Source of the DNA: an uncultured Sphingobacteriaceae bacterium
GTDB lineage: Bacteria; Bacteroidota; Bacteroidia; Sphingobacteriales; Sphingobacteriaceae
Assembly: GCA_946887045.1 (NCBI GenBank)
Contig: CAMPKC010000027.1
Location: 1 to 53,458, forward strand
Reading direction: 5' to 3'
Length of the DNA stretch: 53,458 nt
Shown: positions 34,553-42,133 of the stretch, piece by piece
Layout of the letters: each line of letters begins with the position of its first letter
Position numbering within the stretch: position 1 is the first letter of the stretch
The notes under the pieces: generated by a model
Told to the model about the DNA's origin: nothing
The model's database searches: none
Seen by the model: only the letters and a program-made list of their open reading frames with translations
Program-made: the position numbers and the translations under genes

Positions 34553-34657
34553 AAATTAAAAAGGCAAAATTAAAAAGGCAAAATTAAAAAAACGGCTAGT
34601 GATGAGTTGAATTGAAAAGTCAAAATTAAAAAGTCAAAATTAAAAAGGTAAAATTGA
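34553..34657 (+). repeat. 14-bp AAATTAAAAAGGCA-type tandem repeats
   Basis: About seven A-rich units in two runs (34553-34590 and 34610-34657), variants of AAATTAAAAAGGCA, with one GGCTAGTGATGAG interruption. They form the left part of the 416-bp gap between purH and the cassette recombinase. They could bend DNA or be slippage products. Confidence 0.6.
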
Positions 34658-34682
34658 AAATCATTTACATCTTTTGGTTTAG

Positions 34683-34781
34683 TACACTGTTAGTACAGTA
34701 TGTGTACAGTATCTATACGGTATCCATACAGTATCCATACAGTATCTATGCTTTATCTATACAGTATCTATACAGATGCCC
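34683..34781 (+). repeat. Nine 11-bp TACAGTATCTA tandem repeats
   Basis: Nine consecutive 11-bp units (34683 to 34781) are variants of TACAGTATCTA, including TACGGTATCCA and TGCTTTATCTA. The period is one helical turn, so repeated sites would sit on one DNA face. They end 120 bp before the recombinase ATG and may be a regulator array for it. Confidence 0.75.
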
Positions 34782-34901: not shown

Positions 34902-36509
34902 ATGAATGCGGAAAAAATTATCCATAATGGGATAGAACGAATCAAAATAGATTTTCCCTATAATACCGAAATTGCTGCTCAGCTAAAGGAAATAGCTGAT
35001 TGCCGCTGGAGCAGAACCCATAACGCCTGGCATATTCCATATACAAAAGCTGCATTTGTTGAATTGAAAGCGATTTTTCCGGAGGTAGGCTATAAACAGA
35101 AGGAACCCGAAGTGACTGCAGAGCCGAGAGATATGGAGCAGGCAACAACGCCAATTTGGCGAAAAGATAGTATTTGTATTTATGTATCGGGAAGGAAGAT
35201 AATACTGAAGATGCCTAAAAAGGATGTGGACGTAAAATTTTTACTGAGCCTGCGCTATTCAAAATGGGATGCTCAAAATAAATGCTGGAACATCCCCTCG
35301 TATCCTGGGAACCTTGAACAGATAAAAGAGCATTTTGCCGGCAGGATAAGCGTACTTGAAGAAGGTGGATCTGATTTAAGTGCCGCAAATGACGGTCGTT
35401 CGGTGCGTAAAGCCGAAGTTTTGGTTATAAAAACCATTGCGGGGAGATTGAAAATTATTTTTGGTTTTCATAAACGGTTAAGTTCGCTGATTCGCACGAT
35501 TCCCTATCATAGCTGGAATGCGCAAAATAAATGGTGGACGGTTCCGTATACCGATAAGTTTCTGCAACTAATAAAAAGTCAGTGTGCAGAAGATAATTTG
35601 ATTTTTAACTATGAGGAAGAAGAAAGGGCAAATGATAAGCTGGCACGCCTGACGCCTTTTGATATACCAAATTACAGAACCTGTCCCCAAGAGCTTATAG
35701 ATAAGCTTACAGAGCTAAGGTATAGCGAGAAAACCATAAAAACGTATAGTAATTCGTTTGAAGAGTTTATTAATTACTTCCACAAGCATGATATAAATAG
35801 TATTAATGAGAGTATGATTGTTTCGTTTTTGCGCCATTTGGTAACCGAACGGAAGGTATCATCGTCATACCAAAACCAAGCTATAAATGCGATAAAGTTT
35901 TATTACGAGCGGGTTTTGGGAGGACAGCGCAAGTTTTATTTCATTGAGCGACCGATTACAGAAAAGGTATTGCCGGTAGTTTTGAATAAGGAAGAGGTTA
36001 TAAGTATTTTAAATGCTACGGAAAACCAGAAGCACAAGGCGATGCTGATGCTCGCCTATTCTTCAGGGTTGCGGGTGAGTGAGCTGTTAAGTTTGAAGAT
36101 TAAGGATGTCGACTCGGAGCGGATGCAATTGCGGGTAAGTCAGGCCAAGGGAAAGAAAGATCGTTACACGATACTTAGCACGAAGGCTCTGGACATGCTG
36201 AGGGTATATTTTAAAAACTACCAACCAAGGGAATGGTTATTTGAAGGTGTAGACGGTGGTCAGTACAGTACGCGCAGCATTCAGGCTGTGATGCAGTACA
36301 CATGCAAGAGGGCTGGTATATTGAAGAAGGTGAGTATGCATACTTTAAGACATTCGTTTGCTACTCATTTATTGGAAAGTGGCACGGATTTGCGATATAT
36401 ACAAAGTTTATTAGGCCATTCGTCGAGCAAAACCACCGAGATTTACACACATGTTACTACAAAGGGATTTAATCAGATTGTTAGTCCGCTAGATAATTTG
36501 GATATATGA
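34902..36509 (+). CDS. Cassette-array tyrosine recombinase with three N-terminal HARP-like repeats
   Basis: This recombinase probably inserts and excises the downstream cassettes. Residues 11-60, 91-146 and 172-229 are three divergent copies of a unit reading W-S/D-x-x-x-x-x-W-x-I/V-P followed by a helix, like the HARP domain of SMARCAL1-type helicases; such units bind structured DNA there. A SAM-like core-binding domain follows (262-340: LRYSEKTIKTYSNSFEEFI), then the catalytic domain with R391 (SSGLRVSEL), K in QAKGKKDR, H480-x-x-R483 (HTLRHSFATHLL), H506 (LLGHSSSKTTEIYTHV) and Tyr515. Between boxes I and II it lacks the extra segment that marks canonical IntI. It is therefore XerC/D-like in catalysis with an unusual front end. 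ATG 34902 follows a good -7 box. Confidence 0.9.
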   Translation: MNAEKIIHNGIERIKIDFPYNTEIAAQLKEIADCRWSRTHNAWHIPYTKAAFVELKAIFPEVGYKQKEPEVTAEPRDMEQATTPIWRKDSICIYVSGRKIILKMPKKDVDVKFLLSLRYSKWDAQNKCWNIPSYPGNLEQIKEHFAGRISVLEEGGSDLSAANDGRSVRKAEVLVIKTIAGRLKIIFGFHKRLSSLIRTIPYHSWNAQNKWWTVPYTDKFLQLIKSQCAEDNLIFNYEEEERANDKLARLTPFDIPNYRTCPQELIDKLTELRYSEKTIKTYSNSFEEFINYFHKHDINSINESMIVSFLRHLVTERKVSSSYQNQAINAIKFYYERVLGGQRKFYFIERPITEKVLPVVLNKEEVISILNATENQKHKAMLMLAYSSGLRVSELLSLKIKDVDSERMQLRVSQAKGKKDRYTILSTKALDMLRVYFKNYQPREWLFEGVDGGQYSTRSIQAVMQYTCKRAGILKKVSMHTLRHSFATHLLESGTDLRYIQSLLGHSSSKTTEIYTHVTTKGFNQIVSPLDNLDI

Positions 36510-36634
36510 TTTTATATGATTAATTATGTGTATGAGATGGCTGAAACTGTTAAAAAAAGAAAAATTCGGATCGGAATCAGAAGCTCAGCTATATCGGATA
36601 TTTGCGCATATGCGTAAACATACTCGTTGGCGGC
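36510..36634 (+). other. Candidate attI / cassette leader region
   Basis: This is the gap between the recombinase stop and the first core GTTGGCGGC (36626-36634), which is complementary to the inverse core GCCGCCAAC (37160-37168) at the 3' end of the first cassette. By integron rules recombination would fall after G36626, so attI lies just upstream. The block at 36592-36610 (TATCGGATATTTGCGCATA) resembles 34868-34888 before the recombinase. A cassette promoter is expected here but no clean -33/-7 pair is seen. Confidence 0.55.
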
Positions 36635-36652
36635 AAGCATAAGAAAGACGAC

Positions 36653-37150
36653 ATGGTGGACACTAAGACAGCAAAAAAAATTGGGCAGCGACTTGCAATA
36701 AAGTCTGCACTCATAGGAATTGTCGTCGCTTACATCATTTTCGGCGGACTAATTTTCAGTTGGGACCTGAAGATATTCAAAGCAATCTTTTGGATTTTCG
36801 ACGTCCACTTCTGGTACCACTTATTAATTGGAGCTTTCGGATTATTAATAATGGCTTACCTTTTTGGACAACAAGCAGGAGTTGAAATAATTCTGAAAAA
36901 CAGAAATGAACTTTTAACCGGAATAAAGTATGGATTTTTCACTTTATTACTTGGAACTTTAATAGGAAGCACAGTCGGGTTTATTGAAGAAGGAATCGAT
37001 AATATAGGGGACTTTGGTAATCCGTTTTTCGATTACTATTTCAAACCAATGTATTGGGTGACAATCTTTGGAATAGTGCCAGTGGTCATTGTGGGGATAT
37101 GGTTCGGGCGACAGATTAAGAAGCAAGGACTTAATATACAGGGGGACTAA
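36653..37150 (+). CDS. Cassette 1: polytopic membrane protein, unknown
   Basis: The 165-aa protein (MVDTKTAKKIGQRLAIKSAL start) has about four membrane helices (GIVVAYIIFGGLIF; LLIGAFGLLIMAYLF; YGFFTLLLGTLIGSTVGFI; WVTIFGIVPVVIVGIWF). I use ATG 36653; the open frame extends to a TTG at 36602, but that lies outside the cassette, upstream of the core at 36626. It is the first and presumably best-expressed cassette. No function recognised. Confidence 0.75.
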   Translation: MVDTKTAKKIGQRLAIKSALIGIVVAYIIFGGLIFSWDLKIFKAIFWIFDVHFWYHLLIGAFGLLIMAYLFGQQAGVEIILKNRNELLTGIKYGFFTLLLGTLIGSTVGFIEEGIDNIGDFGNPFFDYYFKPMYWVTIFGIVPVVIVGIWFGRQIKKQGLNIQGD

Positions 37151-37159
37151 AAAATGCCA

Positions 37160-37295
37160 GCCGCCAACATGGGTTTTGCGAAAATGGCGGGTGACGTTGT
37201 TCTCGAAAATTTTCTACATTTAACTAAGCTTTGTGCTGGGCGACAATAAAGTGCTTTCTATCCGCCATCTTCGCAAAGCCTTAACCGTTAGGTGC
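37160..37295 (+). repeat. attC-like site 1 (family A)
   Basis: Inverse core GCCGCCAAC (37160-37168); core GTTAGGTGC (37287-37295). Arms GGGTTTTGCGAAAATGGCGG (from 37171) and CCGCCATCTTCGCAAAGCC (from 37262) pair almost throughout, with a few extra bases on one side. The 65-70-base loop contains GACGTT and GTGCTGGGCGAC (37233-37244). Confidence 0.85.
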
Positions 37296-37337
37296 AAACT
37301 TAACAAACCGACATAATAACAAAACCCTTCGAGCTTG

Positions 37338-37904
37338 ATGAAGAAAAGCAGGACTCAAAAGATGCTACAAACAAAACGATTGGCATTATCTAGATGGCAA
37401 ATGTTTTGGCATTTTTCAGTCGTGCCTTTCATACTCATTACACCAATAATGAGTGCAATAGCAATTTTTCAAATAGAGGTAAGTGGGGCTTACAGCGGAG
37501 TACGGACTACTAATGAACACTTCAATATGGGATGGCCCTGGTTAATCCCCGCTGCCCTATTCGCGGTGATTCAATATCGACGATTAAGTCTTAAAAAAGT
37601 TGAAGTTTCTTTAACAGCAGAAGAATTTAAAAAATCAGTTAAAGAAGTGGGAAGGAAATTAGGCTGGCAGGTGGAATGTTTGACCAATGATTTAATGATT
37701 GCTAAAACCGGGTTCACTTGGGCAAGTTGGGGCGAAAGAATAACAGTCATCCGTGAAAGAGACTTTCTCTTAATAAATAGCATATGCGACCCTGATAGTC
37801 GTCCGTCAATCTCCTCGTGGGGTAGGAATCGTAAAAATATCAATGCTTTAGTGACAGCAATAAAGCCAGCACCTAACACAGGCTCTTGCAAAAATGGCGG
37901 GTAA
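37338..37904 (+). CDS. Cassette 2: two-helix membrane protein with cytoplasmic domain
   Basis: The 188-aa protein starts at ATG 37338, overlapping a TTG at 37335. A basic N-terminus precedes two membrane helices (about 25-45, WHFSVVPFILITPIMSAIAI; and 65-80). They are followed by a soluble domain of about 100 residues (EEFKKSVKEVGRKLGWQVEC, SWGERITVIRERDFLLINSI). The last residues (NTGSCKNGG) are encoded by the attC arm, and the stop lies inside site 2. The plan resembles cassette 6. Function unknown. Confidence 0.75.
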   Translation: MKKSRTQKMLQTKRLALSRWQMFWHFSVVPFILITPIMSAIAIFQIEVSGAYSGVRTTNEHFNMGWPWLIPAALFAVIQYRRLSLKKVEVSLTAEEFKKSVKEVGRKLGWQVECLTNDLMIAKTGFTWASWGERITVIRERDFLLINSICDPDSRPSISSWGRNRKNINALVTAIKPAPNTGSCKNGG

Positions 37905-38004
37905 CGTTATTCTTAAATTTTTCTACATTTAACCAAGCTTTGTGCCGGGTGACAATTGATTGCTTTCTATCCGCCATCTTCGCAAAGCCCTAAACGTTAG
38001 CGGT
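37869..38004 (+). repeat. attC-like site 2 (family A)
   Basis: Inverse core GCACCTAAC (37869-37877), the exact complement of the GTTAGGTGC core at the start of cassette 2; core GTTAGCGGT (37996-38004). Arms GGCTCTTGCAAAAATGGCGG and CCGCCATCTTCGCAAAGCC. Confidence 0.9.
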
Positions 38005-38040
38005 AATTACCCAAACCCACCAAATAGTCTAAAGACTGAC

Positions 38041-38424
38041 ATGAATGAAAGAATAAAAACCTATTTAAAGCTTGGATTTTCATTCTACGTCCTTAATGCA
38101 ATTTTTCTTTTAGTAATTCAACCAAAACTAGAACATCTGCATGATGGAGGCTTTAGCCTACTTCTGTTGTTTATTATCATTCTTCAAATCCCGTTTTTCA
38201 AGAGACTTTTGAATCGAAATACATTTGTAGCAATAATTGCCTCTGTCTTTCTTACGTTGATTGCGACAATTTCAGCGTTAGCAATTGTTCAGAATAGCTC
38301 ACTTTACAATGTTGACCCCTTACCAAGACAATTTATAATAGCAACATTCTTCTTTTCGATTGAGATTTTAATACTGGAATTCACGAACAGACAATTGGAC
38401 CAGAAGAAAAGTAACTACCGCTAA
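38041..38424 (+). CDS. Cassette 3: small polytopic membrane protein
   Basis: The 127-aa protein (MNERIKTYLKLGFSFYVLNA) has four predicted membrane helices (FYVLNAIFLLVI; FSLLLLFIIILQIPFF; FVAIIASVFLTLIATISAL; FIIATFFFSIEILIL). The start is ATG 38041; the frame is open upstream only because it reads through the attC site. The stop TAA lies within the inverse core of site 3 (38422-38424), so gene and site are fused end to end. No family recognised. Confidence 0.75.
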   Translation: MNERIKTYLKLGFSFYVLNAIFLLVIQPKLEHLHDGGFSLLLLFIIILQIPFFKRLLNRNTFVAIIASVFLTLIATISALAIVQNSSLYNVDPLPRQFIIATFFFSIEILILEFTNRQLDQKKSNYR

Positions 38425-38551
38425 CACAGCCTTTACAAAAATGGCGGGCGACGTTATTCTCGAAAATTTCTACATTTAACTAAGTTTTGTGCCGAGCAAT
38501 AATGAAGTGCTTTCTATCCGCCATCTTCGCAAAGCCTTAACCGTTATGGGC
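38417..38551 (+). repeat. attC-like site 3 (family A)
   Basis: Inverse core ACCGCTAAC (38417-38425), the complement of the cassette 3 start core GTTAGCGGT; core GTTATGGGC (38543-38551). Same arms and loop as sites 1, 2 and 7 with a few substitutions (GCCTTTACAAAAATGGCGG). Confidence 0.9.
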
Positions 38552-38556
38552 AAGCT

Positions 38557-39093
38557 ATGAAGACCACTTCACTCCTGTTGCTGCTAATTAACCTACTGTC
38601 TTCATGTAACAACATGGGCGACAACCATAAATCTTATTTCGTCTTAACCGACACAGTTGTAAGTGAGATAAAAAAAGGAATACAAAGTCACAGGTTCTCA
38701 AAACAGGAATTATCTCATAAATCAAAATTTGGAGGGTATGTGTATGAGCTCCTTAAGGAGGATAAATCACGGGTGTACCTATGTTCCGAAAACGGTGGCG
38801 AGGCTGGTTCGACTATATTGGAATGTTACTACAAAGAAGGACAACCGATATTTGCAGTTTATAGAAAGTATGTATTTGAATCAAAAGGCCATGAATATGA
38901 CTCCGAAAAGCCCATTTTAACATTTGAACAAGCGAACTACATTGTCGAGAACCGGACTCTAAAAAAGGCAATTACAAAAAATGTTAAGAATGAACTCTGG
39001 AGCGACGAAGACATTCCTTCTGATGTCGAATTGATGAATATCATCAAAAGCATACAACTCGAGCTTGCGGAAGAAAAAATAGCCAGCCCATAA
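38557..39093 (+). CDS. Cassette 4: lipoprotein, unknown
   Basis: The 178-aa protein has a signal peptide ending in a lipobox (MKTTSLLLLLINLLSSCNN, Cys17). The mature part is polar with mixed alpha/beta character and one disulphide-capable pair (VYLCSENGGEAGSTILECYYKE spans it; the cysteines are 14 apart). The ATG is only 6 bp after the core, so its ribosome-binding site must lie within the attC arm. The stop TAA lies in the inverse core of site 4. Function unknown. Confidence 0.75.
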   Translation: MKTTSLLLLLINLLSSCNNMGDNHKSYFVLTDTVVSEIKKGIQSHRFSKQELSHKSKFGGYVYELLKEDKSRVYLCSENGGEAGSTILECYYKEGQPIFAVYRKYVFESKGHEYDSEKPILTFEQANYIVENRTLKKAITKNVKNELWSDEDIPSDVELMNIIKSIQLELAEEKIASP

Positions 39094-39222
39094 CATAGGG
39101 TTTAAGTTATGCCCGCGCGACGTGAATCTCGTTCCTTTTCTTCTTTTTAATTACTTTAGTGCTGGGCGACCGGTGACTGCCTTTTAATCGGGCACAACCT
39201 AAACCCTTAACCGTTATGTGGC
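39086..39222 (+). repeat. attC-like site 4 (family B)
   Basis: Inverse core GCCCATAAC (39086-39094), the complement of the cassette 4 start core GTTATGGGC; core GTTATGTGGC (39213-39222). Arms GGGTTTAAGTTATGCCCG and CGGGCACAACCTAAACCC differ entirely from family A, but the loop keeps GCGACGTGAATCTCG and AGTGCTGGGCGAC. Confidence 0.88.
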
Positions 39223-39241
39223 ATTTTAAAAAACCGACCAA

Positions 39242-39802
39242 TTGACAAGACTACTCCTTATAATAACTGTTCTGTTCTCCATATCTTGTAGGTGTAGCAC
39301 CGACTTTAAAACCTTACAAACTGGCCAAGTCGACAATATTGACACGACCATCAGTGCATCAGCCAGAATGTGGCAAGGACAATATGAATATCTTGGAATA
39401 GACATCAAAATAAAAAGGAAAGACTCCCTTTTTGTAAAAAACATAATTGTAAAGCCTTTCAGAAAGGATGGAGAGTTTTATCCTTGGTTTTCTGACTTTG
39501 CTATGAATTCTTATTATACGGGAAACGGACAATCTCTAGGAAATAGAGGCGATAAAGGAATTTATTGGGAAGATTATTTTGCCGACAAATTTCAAGAGCT
39601 TCCCAAAGAAAATAGAAGGACTAACAAAAATGATTTTTTTGTAACGTATACGGCGCATTATAATAGCGAAAAGTCAATAGACTTCGAAAACTTTTCAGCG
39701 GACATTCAAGTGGAACTTATAGACAGAGAAGGCAAAGAAATAAAGATTGAACGTCACTTCGACTTCCATGGGAAACGATATTGTAGATTCAGTCCGCATT
39801 GA
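39242..39802 (+). CDS. Cassette 5: secreted or lipid-anchored protein, TTG start
   Basis: The 186-aa protein starts at TTG 39242 (MTRLLLIITVLFSISCRCST), giving a signal peptide with a weak lipobox at Cys16. The mature part is soluble and basic-aromatic (IDIKIKRKDSLFVKNIIVKP, FADKFQELPKENRR). A 9-codon ORF (39216-39245) begins at the ATG inside the core GTTATGTGG and ends in TGA overlapping the TTG, suggesting termination-reinitiation. No family recognised. Confidence 0.65.
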   Translation: MTRLLLIITVLFSISCRCSTDFKTLQTGQVDNIDTTISASARMWQGQYEYLGIDIKIKRKDSLFVKNIIVKPFRKDGEFYPWFSDFAMNSYYTGNGQSLGNRGDKGIYWEDYFADKFQELPKENRRTNKNDFFVTYTAHYNSEKSIDFENFSADIQVELIDREGKEIKIERHFDFHGKRYCRFSPH

Positions 39803-39809
39803 AGAAAAC

Positions 39810-39946
39810 GCCACATAACACAGGCTCTGTTGCAATTGAGGCTGACGTGGTTTATGTAATTTCAGTGCTTTCTACTACATTAGTGCAGGTTTGAAAGTGA
39901 CGTGCAATTAATGCCGCAACAGCAACAAGCCTTAACCGTTAGTGGC
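39810..39946 (+). repeat. attC-like site 5 (family C)
   Basis: Inverse core GCCACATAAC (39810-39819), the complement of the cassette 5 start core GTTATGTGGC; core GTTAGTGGC (39938-39946). Arms GGCTCTGTTGCAATTG and its partner CAATTAATGCCGC with GCAACAGCAACAAGCC form a third stem type. The loop retains GACGTGG and TAGTGCAGG remnants. Confidence 0.8.
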
Positions 39947-39987
39947 AACAATCGGACCCGACCAAAGACATATCCGACCTGAACCAA

Positions 39988-40536
39988 ATGATTACCGACA
40001 TTGATATTCAACTAAGTAAAGCCGAGAACAAGCTAGTCTTCAGAATGAATTTATTTGAGCGAATTTTCGCTTTCGTTGTCGATACAGCAATGATATTTAC
40101 CTTTCCTATAATAACACTTTCTTACACTTTACAGCATTTAGACACTTTTAAGGAAGACTACTTCGGCGAACTTATGGGAAACCTGGTAGCATTTGGCTTT
40201 GCATATTTTCTTTATGAATGGCTTAAGAAACCGACCAGATTGCATAAGATTAGCGGGCAAAGTATAGAACAAAATAAACTTATCGCCAAAGAAGTACTGA
40301 AGGAAATGAGCTGGTTAATTCAGGTTGAAAAAGCAGACCATTTAATTGCTGGCCCCCAAAGCACCTTTCAAAAACAATTGACAGTTATATTTGACAGAAA
40401 AGACATTCTCTTGAGTTCACTTAGGTTTGGACGAAGTGACGCAATGATGAACTATCATTCAGATGGCGCAGAGACGTTTAAGGAAAAGTTTGAAGCTTAC
40501 ATCAATGCCAGAACGATAATTGGACATCTGGAATGA
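39988..40536 (+). CDS. Cassette 6: two-helix membrane protein with cytoplasmic domain
   Basis: The 182-aa protein has membrane helices near residues 28-48 (RIFAFVVDTAMIFTFPIITL) and 62-78 (LMGNLVAFGFAYFLYEW). A soluble domain follows (NKLIAKEVLKEMSWLIQVEKA, KQLTVIFDRKDILLSSLRFG). The overall plan, domain sizes and a W-x-x-x-V-E/C-x-x...D-x-L/M-I-A pattern resemble cassette 2, so they may be distant homologues. Function unknown. Confidence 0.75.
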   Translation: MITDIDIQLSKAENKLVFRMNLFERIFAFVVDTAMIFTFPIITLSYTLQHLDTFKEDYFGELMGNLVAFGFAYFLYEWLKKPTRLHKISGQSIEQNKLIAKEVLKEMSWLIQVEKADHLIAGPQSTFQKQLTVIFDRKDILLSSLRFGRSDAMMNYHSDGAETFKEKFEAYINARTIIGHLE

Positions 40537-40545
40537 AGAATTGCT

Positions 40546-40681
40546 GCTGCTAACACAGGGTTCAAATTATGCCCGGGCGACGTGAATCTCGTTCCTGTTC
40601 TACTTTTTAATTACTTTAGTGCTGGGTGACAGGTGACTGACTTTTAACCGGGCACAACTTAAACCCTTAACCGTTAGCAGC
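40546..40681 (+). repeat. attC-like site 6 (family B)
   Basis: Inverse core GCTGCTAAC (40546-40554); core GTTAGCAGC (40673-40681). The inverse core does not complement the cassette 6 start core (GTTAGTGGC), the only exception in the array. Its bases instead complement the core of its own site. Arms as in site 4. Confidence 0.88.
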
Positions 40682-40699
40682 AAAGCAAAAACAAATCGC

Positions 40700-41401
40700 A
40701 TGAAAAACGCAGCTATACTTTTGTGGTCTATCATTCTAGTTAGTAGTTGCGACAGTTCGAAATGGGAAACTATAAAGGGTAGTGGCATCAACGATGAACC
40801 GAAGTCGATTGGAAATGTAATTTATTTCGAAAATGAGAACGAAGGTGTCGTTGGAGGCTATTACACAGTTAGGGACGCAAATGCAGAAAACGATTTTGAT
40901 TTAACACTGAAACCGATTCTGTTTTTAACTCAAGATGGAGGGAGGAATTGGACTGAAGTGCTATTTAGCCCTACGATGCAGGGCGCCATCGAGAACGCGA
41001 TTTTCAGCGGTGATACTTTAATCTGTCAAATTGATTCTTCTATATTTCTCTTGTCGGACGGAGGCAAACGCATACTAGCAGCGCCAGATTCAAATGAGCA
41101 AAAAGAAATTATTAGAAAACACTTCAGTGCCAATAGACATGACATCAAAACACATGATTTTTTTCATCAGGACAAAAAGTATTATATAAAAGAAATCTAC
41201 CGGAACGAGCACTCCGTTGTAAATGTGTGCTACGGCGAAGAGACAATGACTGATTACTATTTTGTTTCATTTGACAAAGGTGCCACGTGGACTTTTTTAC
41301 AAAAAACATTTGGTGATAACAGAGCCAGATTTTTGTTACGAGATAAATATCTATTGTGTTATGACTTTCCATTTGGACTGCGACGATTGAAACTGAAATA
41401 A
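40700..41401 (+). CDS. Cassette 7: lipoprotein with BNR/YCF48-like repeats
   Basis: The 233-aa protein has a lipoprotein signal (MKNAAILLWSIILVSSCDSS, Cys17). The mature part has two Asp-box-like turns (LTQDGGRNWTEVLF near residue 75; VSFDKGATWTFLQ near residue 195) typical of beta-propeller families such as YCF48/BNR proteins, though the protein is too short for a full propeller unless it oligomerises. It is the longest cassette gene. Function unknown; an outer-surface location is likely. Confidence 0.75.
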   Translation: MKNAAILLWSIILVSSCDSSKWETIKGSGINDEPKSIGNVIYFENENEGVVGGYYTVRDANAENDFDLTLKPILFLTQDGGRNWTEVLFSPTMQGAIENAIFSGDTLICQIDSSIFLLSDGGKRILAAPDSNEQKEIIRKHFSANRHDIKTHDFFHQDKKYYIKEIYRNEHSVVNVCYGEETMTDYYFVSFDKGATWTFLQKTFGDNRARFLLRDKYLLCYDFPFGLRRLKLK

Positions 41402-41407
41402 TGCTCT

Positions 41408-41543
41408 GCTGCTAACACAGGCTCTTGCAAAAATGGCGGGTGACGTTATTCTCGAAATTTTCTACATTTAACTAAGTTTTGTGCTGGATGACAATGAAGT
41501 GCTTTCTATCCGCCATCTTCGCAAAGCCCTATACGTTAACTGC
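41408..41543 (+). repeat. attC-like site 7 (family A)
   Basis: Inverse core GCTGCTAAC (41408-41416), the complement of the cassette 7 start core GTTAGCAGC; core GTTAACTGC (41535-41543). Arms GGCTCTTGCAAAAATGGCGG and CCGCCATCTTCGCAAAGCCC as in site 2. Confidence 0.9.
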
Positions 41544-41558
41544 AATACTTTAGAACTG

Positions 41559-41888
41559 ATGCTGTTCATCATATTTTTTTCAGTTTGGGTGCCGACTTGT
41601 ATTTTCCCGCCTGCCCATAAATTTCTGCGAGACATTAGAGCGTACATTTTTTGCATAGTATTAGCGATTCTAGTTTTTGGACTTTCAGTAATGGATTACA
41701 CGCAGAGTTTTTCAAAAGATGAAAAAATTCAAACTTTAATGTCTTTAAGCCCTCTCACTTTTCTAATACTTTACAAGTTTTTTGACCAAATGATCCTCAA
41801 TAGGTTAGATAGACATATATTTTTCTATATGAAGTATGGTGTAGACTGGGAATCTGATGACCAAACAAAACTAGAATGGATACTGTAG
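41559..41888 (+). CDS. Cassette 8 (last): small membrane protein
   Basis: The 109-aa protein starts at ATG 41559 (MLFIIFFSVWVPTCIFPPAH); the longer open frame from 41481 reads through the attC site. It has three or four hydrophobic segments (LFIIFFSVWVPTCIF; AYIFCIVLAILVFGLSV; LMSLSPLTFLILYKFF). No inverse core complementary to its GTTAACTGC start is found downstream, so this is either the anchored end of the array or a cassette with a lost site. Confidence 0.65.
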   Translation: MLFIIFFSVWVPTCIFPPAHKFLRDIRAYIFCIVLAILVFGLSVMDYTQSFSKDEKIQTLMSLSPLTFLILYKFFDQMILNRLDRHIFFYMKYGVDWESDDQTKLEWIL

Positions 41889-41991
41889 ACAATTCTCATC
41901 TTTGTTCCTCTTTATTGGGGAGCATTGGGGCTGTTGATTTTTTAATTGTAGACGAAGCGGTATAGACTACTCCCTACATAGTTAGAGCAGC

Positions 41992-42014
41992 AACCGCATA
42001 GAGCGGTTTTTTTT
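41992..42014 (+). terminator. Terminator at the end of the cassette array
   Basis: AACCGC (41992-41997) pairs with GCGGTT (42003-42008), followed by eight Ts. It lies just after a GTTAGAGCAGC stretch (41980-41990) that could be a decayed core. A TTTCTGCGTTTTAA unit repeats right after it. Confidence 0.75.
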
Positions 42015-42133
42015 CTGCGTTTTAATTTTTTTCTGCGTTTTAATTACTTTAGCAATTAGAGGGAAGTGAATCCATAACCTGCATAGTGGAAATCCCTTCC
42101 GTACAATATACAACCGACATAACCCAAAACAAT

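What the first reader, a model, noticed from the sequence alone, without database searches (positions are those of the whole stretch)
34902..42014. Integron-like cassette system in a Bacteroidota chromosome, with an unusual recombinase
A tyrosine recombinase is followed by eight same-strand single-gene cassettes and seven homologous 135-137-bp sites that behave like attC: YAAC inverse core at the left, GTTR core at the right, foldable arms, and cassette ends whose core-flanking bases match in complement. The recombinase has no IntI-specific insertion, carries three HARP-like repeats, and points toward the array. The combination fits no integron class I know.
Basis: partly seen in the sequence, partly recalled or inferred. 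Interest (0 to 1): 0.95.

Follow-up and report, generated by a model that had tools for sequence, protein, structure and literature searches.

The report
Bacteroidota gene cassettes with non-IntI recombinase
A recombinase unlike the integrase of known integrons sits at the head of a row of single-gene cassettes and is predicted to capture and release them at folded DNA sites; the same kind of site turned up in 150 of 296 sampled Bacteroidota genomes.

Summary
The window has a tyrosine recombinase (34902-36509), an attI-like core 117 bp downstream, and eight same-strand cassettes with seven attC-like sites. Cassettes begin with the reverse complement of their own ends (6 of 7 exactly over 9 nt). 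A covariance model from these seven sites alone finds such sites behind relatives of the recombinase in 32 of 63 loci. A 66-site model shows compensatory change in 18 of 22 pairs and finds sites in 150 of 296 Bacteroidota genomes, against 3 of 119 in another group. Sites follow this recombinase family (47 of 51 genomes, against 36 of 97 without it), not canonical IntI (21 of 46, against 62 of 102). Three Flavobacterium loci are alike up to the attI core and differ after it; one cassette is shared as a unit. The recombinase lacks the IntI-specific domain (spacing 65 against 107 residues) and carries HARP-like N-terminal repeats. It works like an integron but fails the IntI membership test: a new integron-like class, as far as my nine literature searches show. 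Recombination itself and the role of the repeats are inferred.

The parts
34902..36509 (+). Tyrosine recombinase, 535 aa: N-terminal HARP-like repeats, then core-binding and catalytic domains
   Evidence: PF00589 2.6e-43, PF13495 1.4e-16; TIGR02249 221.3 bits, under its cut-off of 265, in two stretches; best solved-structure match IntI4 2a3v 1.1e-39
34908..35081 (+). HARP-like repeat 1 (residues 3-60)
   Evidence: repeat profile; predicted b-b-a-b-b-a unit
35169..35342 (+). HARP-like repeat 2 (residues 90-147)
   Evidence: repeat profile; predicted unit
35409..35597 (+). HARP-like repeat 3 (residues 170-232)
   Evidence: repeat profile; predicted unit
35691..36461 (+). Core-binding (residues 264-340) and catalytic (360-520) domains, without the IntI additional domain
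   Evidence: K-motif to HxxR spacing 65 against 107 in IntI
36595..36628 (+). attI-like site: partly palindromic stretch ending in the core GTT (G at 36626)
   Evidence: core complements the end of cassette 1; similar layout behind relatives; inverted repeat weak in the window itself (arm 5)
36627..37287 (+). Cassette 1 (gene probably 36653-37150)
   Evidence: start complements own end, 9 of 9
37160..37295 (+). attC-like site 1 (bottom strand predicted to fold)
37288..37996 (+). Cassette 2 (gene 37338-37904)
   Evidence: start complements own end, 9 of 9
37869..38004 (+). attC-like site 2
37997..38543 (+). Cassette 3 (gene probably 38041-38424)
   Evidence: start complements own end, 9 of 9
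38417..38551 (+). attC-like site 3
38544..39213 (+). Cassette 4 (gene 38557-39093; its stop codon lies in the inverse core)
   Evidence: start complements own end, 9 of 9
39086..39221 (+). attC-like site 4
39214..39938 (+). Cassette 5 (gene 39242-39802)
   Evidence: start complements own end, 10 nt
39811..39946 (+). attC-like site 5 (most diverged arms)
39939..40673 (+). Cassette 6 (gene 39988-40536)
   Evidence: start against own end 7 of 9
40546..40681 (+). attC-like site 6
   Evidence: fold z-score -3.31
40674..41535 (+). Cassette 7 (gene 40700-41401)
   Evidence: start complements own end, 10 nt; homologues
41408..41543 (+). attC-like site 7
   Evidence: 92% identical over 122 nt to a site in L195
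41536..42014 (+). Cassette 8, end of array (gene probably 41559-41888); no site of its own recognised; end taken from the finding
   Evidence: no matching end within the array

Best explanation
This is an integron-like cassette array: eight same-strand gene cassettes lie behind a tyrosine recombinase, which is predicted to insert each new cassette at the attI-like core next to its own gene and to excise cassettes at the hairpin-forming sites between them. Shown by sequence: one orientation, a fixed core (inverse core YAAC, core GTTR), complementarity of each cassette's start to its own end, compensatory change in the hairpin arms, a bias towards folding of the bottom strand, recurrence of the layout behind relatives of the recombinase, a break of similarity at the attI core between related species, and a cassette shared as a unit. 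Inferred: the recombinase would bind attI as double strand and the bottom strand of the attC-like site as a folded hairpin, cut within the GTT core (at G/TT if it is like integrons) and exchange one strand, with replication likely resolving the product. It lacks the helix (I2) by which IntI handles hairpins; I infer that the N-terminal HARP-like repeats, found in this array-associated family and not in the IntI, Xer or short relatives examined, do that job, because HARP domains of SMARCAL1 are linked to DNA strand annealing (recalled; a cited title in PMC9371921 says so).
For: Own-end complementarity in the window. In R1 matches (R1 = window-only model): 65 of 79 sites have their own 9-nt complement 0.2-4 kb upstream, control 207 of 5860. 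In R2 matches: 31 of 38 first sites complement a core within 420 bp after the recombinase (control 104 of 1406), and 85 of 100 consecutive sites agree at 8 of 9 or better (control 1273 of 19516). Hairpin: 91.7% of cells paired, 18 of 22 pairs with double changes, covariation 0.593 against 0.179, 0 of 500 shuffles as high. Strand bias: 65 G.T against 8 A.C in the arms read on the bottom strand; 46 sites lean that way, 3 the other, 17 tie. Orientation: 149 of 149 R2 matches in 81 sources on one strand, 148 downstream of the recombinase; in the 296 genomes, of the listed rows, 45 of 50 site-recombinase pairs within 80 kb have the window's layout, 41 of 41 where the recombinase frame is at least 340 aa. 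Genome scale: 150 of 296 against 3 of 119. Sites with this family 47 of 51, without 36 of 97 (odds ratio 20, p 2e-11); with IntI 21 of 46, without 62 of 102. Held out from R2: five further genomes with a full-length relative all have matches behind it in the right orientation (15 of 16 matches; two in L191 are weak, E 0.002). Exchange: L072, L073, L078 are 98-99% identical over the last 900 nt of the recombinase gene and 94-100% up to the core, then 26-33%, and the similarity ends within 7 nt of the core; one cassette is 96% identical inside, 30% and 29% outside. Contigs end nearer on the array side in 54 loci against 8. No IntI domain; outside IntI in the tree.
Against: No recombination product or circle was seen. 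69 of 150 site-bearing genomes gave no family match at E <= 1e-60; of 20 such site-rich genomes searched again, none had a full-length match, some had C-terminal or broken pieces. 12 of 93 recombinase genomes gave no site. Five of 50 pairs have the wrong layout; all involve frames under 340 aa, and the two of these that I fetched have no repeats. Six of 41 repeat-bearing recombinase ORFs with at least 1.5 kb behind them have no R2 match; L048, L062 and L068 have sites but their ORFs (304, 159, 196 aa) show no repeat and look truncated. MFE z-scores of single sites are modest (-0.62 to -3.31 bottom, 0.15 to -2.15 top). R2 was built from sites of these loci, so its numbers there are partly circular; R1, L191-L195 and the 296 genomes (bar G001 and G015) are not. 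The window's protein itself has no PF07443 match. The structure model has pTM 0.38. Cassette 7's protein was found in 0 of 395 genomes.
Confidence: 0.9

Rival explanations
1. The array is a CALIN-like row of ordinary integron cassettes, moved by a canonical IntI acting in trans, and the recombinase next to it is a bystander.
For: Canonical IntI occurs in 46 of 148 Bacteroidota genomes. The cores (YAAC, GTTR) are those of integron sites. 69 of 150 site-bearing genomes have no recombinase of this family at E <= 1e-60.
Against: Sites do not follow IntI (21 of 46 with, 62 of 102 without) but follow this family (47 of 51); 33 of 34 genomes with the family and without IntI have sites. R2 gives no match better than E 0.048 in 20 short IntI loci or 0.02 in 10 longer ones. 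The first cassette starts at a core just behind this recombinase in 31 of 38 loci.
Confidence: 0.05
2. The recombinase inserts cassettes, but it uses the sites as double-stranded DNA, so the hairpin serves something else such as transcription termination or mRNA stability.
For: The recombinase lacks I2, which is held to be needed for single-strand recombination (PMC7790495, passages). The attI-like sites often carry exact inverted repeats, as double-strand binding sites do (arms of 8 or more in 16 of 31, shuffled 1.7%).
Against: The arms prefer G.T on the bottom strand, which is not the coding strand (65 against 8); an RNA function of the transcript would favour G.U on the top strand. The own-end complement extends the same hairpin outward.
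Confidence: 0.07
3. The sites are inert interspersed repeats or ends of non-autonomous transposons, and the neighbourhood of the recombinase is chance.
For: Each cassette has inverted ends of 9-15 nt, as a transposon would; the site family is numerous in some genomes.
Against: Head-to-tail, single orientation, tied to the recombinase; neighbours share one site, with no target duplication visible between them (sequence); the covarying hairpin and the fixed core within it; similarity between species breaks at the core.
Confidence: 0.02

Closest known systems
Integrons (IntI, attI, attC; sedentary chromosomal integrons)
   Same: Cassette arrays behind a tyrosine recombinase, attI-like core at the head, sites with YAAC inverse core and GTTR core, bottom-strand hairpin, mostly one gene per cassette; best solved-structure match is IntI4.
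   Different: The recombinase is outside the IntI clade, under the IntI cut-off, lacks the additional domain, has extra N-terminal repeats and points toward the array. The site model R2 gave nothing better than E 0.02 in the IntI loci tried.
Integrons with an inverted integrase, as in Treponema (recalled, not from a call)
   Same: Integrase gene points toward the array.
   Different: Those integrases are IntI with the additional domain (recalled).
CALIN elements (passage in PMC8618304)
   Same: Arrays without an intact neighbouring recombinase also occur for this site type.
   Different: In the window and many loci a recombinase and an attI-like core head the array.
Integron-like subgroup of simple tyrosine recombinases (PMC8138268, passages)
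   Same: The paper says the specific insertion is not fully conserved in that subgroup, so relatives of this family may lie there; not tested.
   Different: The passages describe no arrays or HARP-like repeats ('HARP' does not occur in the text).
XerC/XerD, XerA
   Same: Catalytic core and motif spacing; NF040815 at 220.9 bits, cut-off 220.
   Different: XerC/D form a separate clade, without repeats, and R2 sites follow the present family.

Membership tests
Integron (IntI-based) | Integrase over the curated IntI cut-off (TIGR02249, 265 bits) | tested here: not met
   221.3 bits; four array-associated relatives 198-221 bits; a canonical IntI from Bacteroidota gives 496.8
Integron (IntI-based) | IntI additional domain (I2) near patch III | tested here: not met
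   Spacing 65 (51 of 85 ORFs measurable) against 107 in IntI (19 of 20) and 73 in XerC/D (10 of 10); gap against 2a3v
Integron (IntI-based) | Recombinase within the IntI clade | tested here: not met
   20 IntI rows monophyletic, 100/100, without this family (86 rows used, root at midpoint, bootstrap not quite settled)
Integron (as a way of working) | attI-like site at the head of the array | tested here: met
   31 of 38 first sites complement a core within 420 bp behind the recombinase, control 104 of 1406
Integron (as a way of working) | attC-like sites: RYYYAAC/GTTRRRY-type cores and a conserved bottom-strand hairpin | tested here: met
   the R box is only YAAC/GTTR here, with cassette-specific flanks
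Integron (as a way of working) | Head-to-tail cassettes that vary between relatives | tested here: met
   (three Flavobacterium loci)
[quoted passage not shown]
   needs bench work or raw reads
Integron (as a way of working) | Promoter Pc driving the cassettes | not tested
   -
CALIN | No integrase beside the array | tested here: not met
   recombinase and attI-like core head the window's array
Xer/dif | Over the XerC or XerD cut-offs | tested here: not met
   XerD 187.4 (329.6), XerC 182.2 (335.15); XerA_Arch 220.9 is just over 220

The most novel reading that the evidence does not exclude
Bacteroidota hold a second lineage of single-strand cassette recombination: a recombinase family that handles folded attC sites without the I2 helix, with HARP-like repeats taking over hairpin recognition. 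It is as widespread in its phylum as the classical kind, and had been overlooked because surveys ask for the IntI domain.
Probability: 0.65. Interest if true: 0.96.

Novelty: new variant of a known kind. Interest (0 to 1): 0.93.

Why it matters
The I2 helix is held to be what gave integron integrases single-strand recombination, is said to occur in no other protein, and its causal role has no direct proof (PMC7790495, passages). A family that seems to work on folded attC-like sites without it makes that question directly testable. It also points to a reservoir of gene cassettes in Bacteroidota: 150 of 296 sampled genomes have the sites, while IntegronFinder 2.0 reports for Bacteroidetes earlier In0 elements and one complete integron, in Salinibacter ruber (PMC9024848, passage).

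Tried and rejected
Own-genome search: no genome is held. Rfam: no family matches the region. Plasmids: only the catalytic region matched, in 52 records, 49 of them Acinetobacter. Viral contigs: 51 loci matched a profile of the recombinase; the best 40 or so cover mainly the core-binding and catalytic part, and R2 found nothing in the two whole records searched; not followed further. Cassette 7 cargo: 50 homologous proteins in the large database, 0 of 395 genomes, so exchange of that gene was not shown. Classical attC in ten longer IntI loci: a rough finder gave two 60-nt sites in L176, longer candidates in L178, L183 and L185, none in six; I draw no conclusion on which sites those IntI use. 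Chromosomal context: blastn found only the recombinase and sites in common with the five family relatives, no flanking gene. First pass of attI finding by inverted repeats picked wrong cores in some loci and was replaced by the complement test. The first pair table used rows chosen by eye; one search repeats it with 150 site rows and 109 recombinase rows as listed, with the same 45 of 50. R1 was run on 63 of 80 loci, leaving out 17 by eye, mostly with little downstream DNA; R2 was run on all 80. The 66 training sites of R2 were chosen by eye for regular length from the R1 matches. The tree used 86 of 111 core regions: 25 of the 70 HARP-group rows were thinned by number, and regions under 230 aa were left out before.
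Full report
THE WINDOW. A 535-aa tyrosine recombinase (34902-36509, +) is followed by eight + strand genes and seven homologous sites of 135-136 nt. The sites start with YAAC and end with GTTR. Taking a cassette as the DNA from one GTT core to the next, the first 9 nt of a cassette are the exact reverse complement of its own last 9 nt in six of seven cassettes, and 7 of 9 in cassette 6. Off-diagonal comparisons reach mostly 3-6 nt; the exception is the end of site 6, which equals that of site 7. In an excised circle, own start and own end would lie together and extend the hairpin.

SITES ARE FOLDED AND UNDER SELECTION. A covariance model of the seven sites, R1, was searched in 63 loci (of 80 fetched) with relatives of the recombinase: 93 matches at E <= 1, 92 on one strand, and 32 of 63 loci with a match at E <= 0.001. 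From 66 sites of regular length a model R2 was made. Of 22 pairs, 18 show double changes that keep the pair; 91.7% of cells pair; no shuffle of 500 comes near, nor do slid partners. In the arms, wobble pairs are G.T on the bottom strand 65 times and on the top strand 8 times; leaving out the one pair richest in G.T (27 cells) it is 38 against 8. The structure was derived on the bottom strand, which may favour this somewhat. Single-site folding energies are only modestly better than shuffles, but more so on the bottom than on the top strand in 7 of 7 sites.

THE RECOMBINASE AND ITS FAMILY. Nearest curated families are the integron integrase (221.3 bits, cut-off 265, matched in two pieces) and XerA (220.9, cut-off 220); nearest solved structures IntI4 then XerA by sequence and by fold. 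The distance from the K motif to HxxR is 65-70 residues in this family (51 of 85 ORFs measurable), 65-69 in short relatives (8 of 9), 73-76 in XerC/D (10 of 10) and 107 in IntI (19 of 20), so the IntI additional domain is absent. The N-terminal 235 residues hold three repeats with a predicted b-b-a-b-b-a fold (pTM 0.38). PF07443 (HARP) matches 14 of 23 homologues at E <= 1, best 5.7e-6, though not the window's own protein. Counting with a repeat profile, relatives have 1 to 4 repeats; 0 of 20 IntI, 0 of 10 XerC/D and 0 of 9 short relatives have any. In a tree of 86 rows IntI and XerC/D are each one clade at 100/100; the repeat-bearing recombinases form more than one group on the IntI side of XerC/D, and their order relative to IntI is not resolved.

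ARRAYS BEHIND RELATIVES. R2 finds 149 sites in the window and 80 loci, all on the same strand relative to the recombinase, 148 of them downstream. In 31 of 38 loci the first site's end complements a core within 420 bp behind the recombinase (control 104 of 1406), and 85 of 100 consecutive sites fit at 8 of 9 or better (control 6.5%). With R1 matches the own 9-nt complement occurs upstream for 65 of 79 sites (control 3.5%; three of 82 sites were dropped for lack of a core at the expected place). At the attI-like cores, exact inverted repeats with arms of 8 or more occur in 16 of 31, against 1.7% of shuffles; the window's own is weak (arm 5). Contigs end nearer on the array side in 54 loci against 8, and within 1.5 kb in 34 against 5, as expected if long repetitive arrays break assemblies.

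GENOME SCALE. R2 at E <= 1e-5 (at most 11 candidates scored per genome) finds sites in 150 of 296 Bacteroidota genomes, and in 3 of 119 genomes of the group of L079, a record titled Firmicutes (the group is not named by the tool). 93 of the 296 have a recombinase of this family at E <= 1e-60 (only up to four candidates scored per genome): 81 with both, 69 with sites only, 12 with recombinase only, 134 with neither, odds ratio 13, p 3e-18. In the 148 genomes also searched for canonical IntI (46 have it over the cut-off), sites occur in 47 of 51 with this family and 36 of 97 without, but in 21 of 46 with IntI and 62 of 102 without; with the family and no IntI, 33 of 34. Among the listed rows, 45 of 50 site-recombinase pairs on one contig within 80 kb have the window's layout, out to 73 kb; for recombinase frames of at least 340 aa it is 41 of 41, for shorter frames 4 of 9. 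Of 20 site-rich genomes without the family, searched again, none had a full-length recombinase; several had fragments. These are CALIN-like. Among 301 genomes of the family of G001 (Pedobacter aquatilis locus L077), five have a full-length relative of the window's protein at E <= 1e-90. They were not used for R2, and all five have matches in the right place and orientation (15 of 16 matches; those in L191 are weak); a site in L195 is 92% identical to site 7 of the window.

CASSETTES MOVE. Three Flavobacterium loci (L072, L073, L078) share 98-99% of the last 900 nt of the recombinase gene and 94-100% of the next 106 nt up to the core; the next 200 nt are 26-33% identical. Their wider alignments (up to 6.2 kb at 91% in one piece) end within 7 nt of the core. 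One cassette of about 613 nt is 96% identical between L073 and L078 while 300 nt on either side are 30% and 29%. This is the pattern of insertion at attI and of transfer by whole cassettes.

HOW IT WORKS (inference). The recombinase would capture circular cassettes at its attI, next to its own gene, so that new cassettes come first; the cassette enters through the folded bottom strand of its attC-like site; attC x attC events release circles. What IntI does with I2 must be done otherwise. The repeats are the candidate, as array association and repeats go together and HARP domains belong to strand-annealing enzymes. Against this: 69 of 150 site-bearing genomes have no such recombinase, and nothing here shows catalysis.

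LITERATURE. Nine searches of an open-access library without preprints or most subscription papers listed no paper on such a system, judged by titles and abstract starts. Passages were read in PMC9024848, PMC8618304, PMC9668308, PMC2426708, PMC8138268, PMC8352920 and PMC9371921, and abstract, outline and passages in PMC7790495; none was read whole. Two of these (PMC8618304, PMC9668308) list Bacteroidota among phyla with integrons, and canonical IntI is common in the genomes searched here, so integrons as such are not new to the phylum; the recombinase type is.

VERDICT. It works like an integron; it is not a member of the IntI integrons by three tests that were run and not met. I file it as a new variant, an integron-like class of the Bacteroidota.

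Noticed in passing
window 34683-34781: Tandem 11-bp repeats (TACAGTATCTA type, about eight units) 120-220 bp upstream of the recombinase start; not evident by eye upstream of five relatives printed. Possibly regulatory.
   Followed up: partly
window 34553-34660: 14-bp A-rich repeats (AAAATTAAAAAGGC type) upstream of the 11-bp repeats.
   Followed up: no
window 42029-42052: 24 nt, 92% like the middle of sites 4 and 6, just behind cassette 8: perhaps the remnant of a decayed last site, or chance in A+T-rich DNA.
   Followed up: no
Bacteroidota genomes (L136-L155, L176-L185): Canonical IntI over the curated cut-off in 46 of 148 genomes, more than the survey passage read suggests; a rough finder saw clear 60-nt sites in only one of ten longer loci (L176).
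   Followed up: partly
L166-L171, L173-L175: Short relatives (about 200-306 aa) without repeats, some near sites but often in the wrong orientation; function unknown.
   Followed up: partly
L018 10625-10947 and L034 13875-14203: Similar cassette genes (75.5% over 335 nt) that seem to end in different site types, one about 119 nt and one about 80 nt.
   Followed up: no
L052 and L056: The recombinase is split into two ORFs in these loci, so the array heads there may be inactive or mis-assembled.
   Followed up: no
G098, G106, G125, G131, G242 and others: Site-rich genomes without a full-length family recombinase, some with C-terminal or broken pieces.
   Followed up: partly
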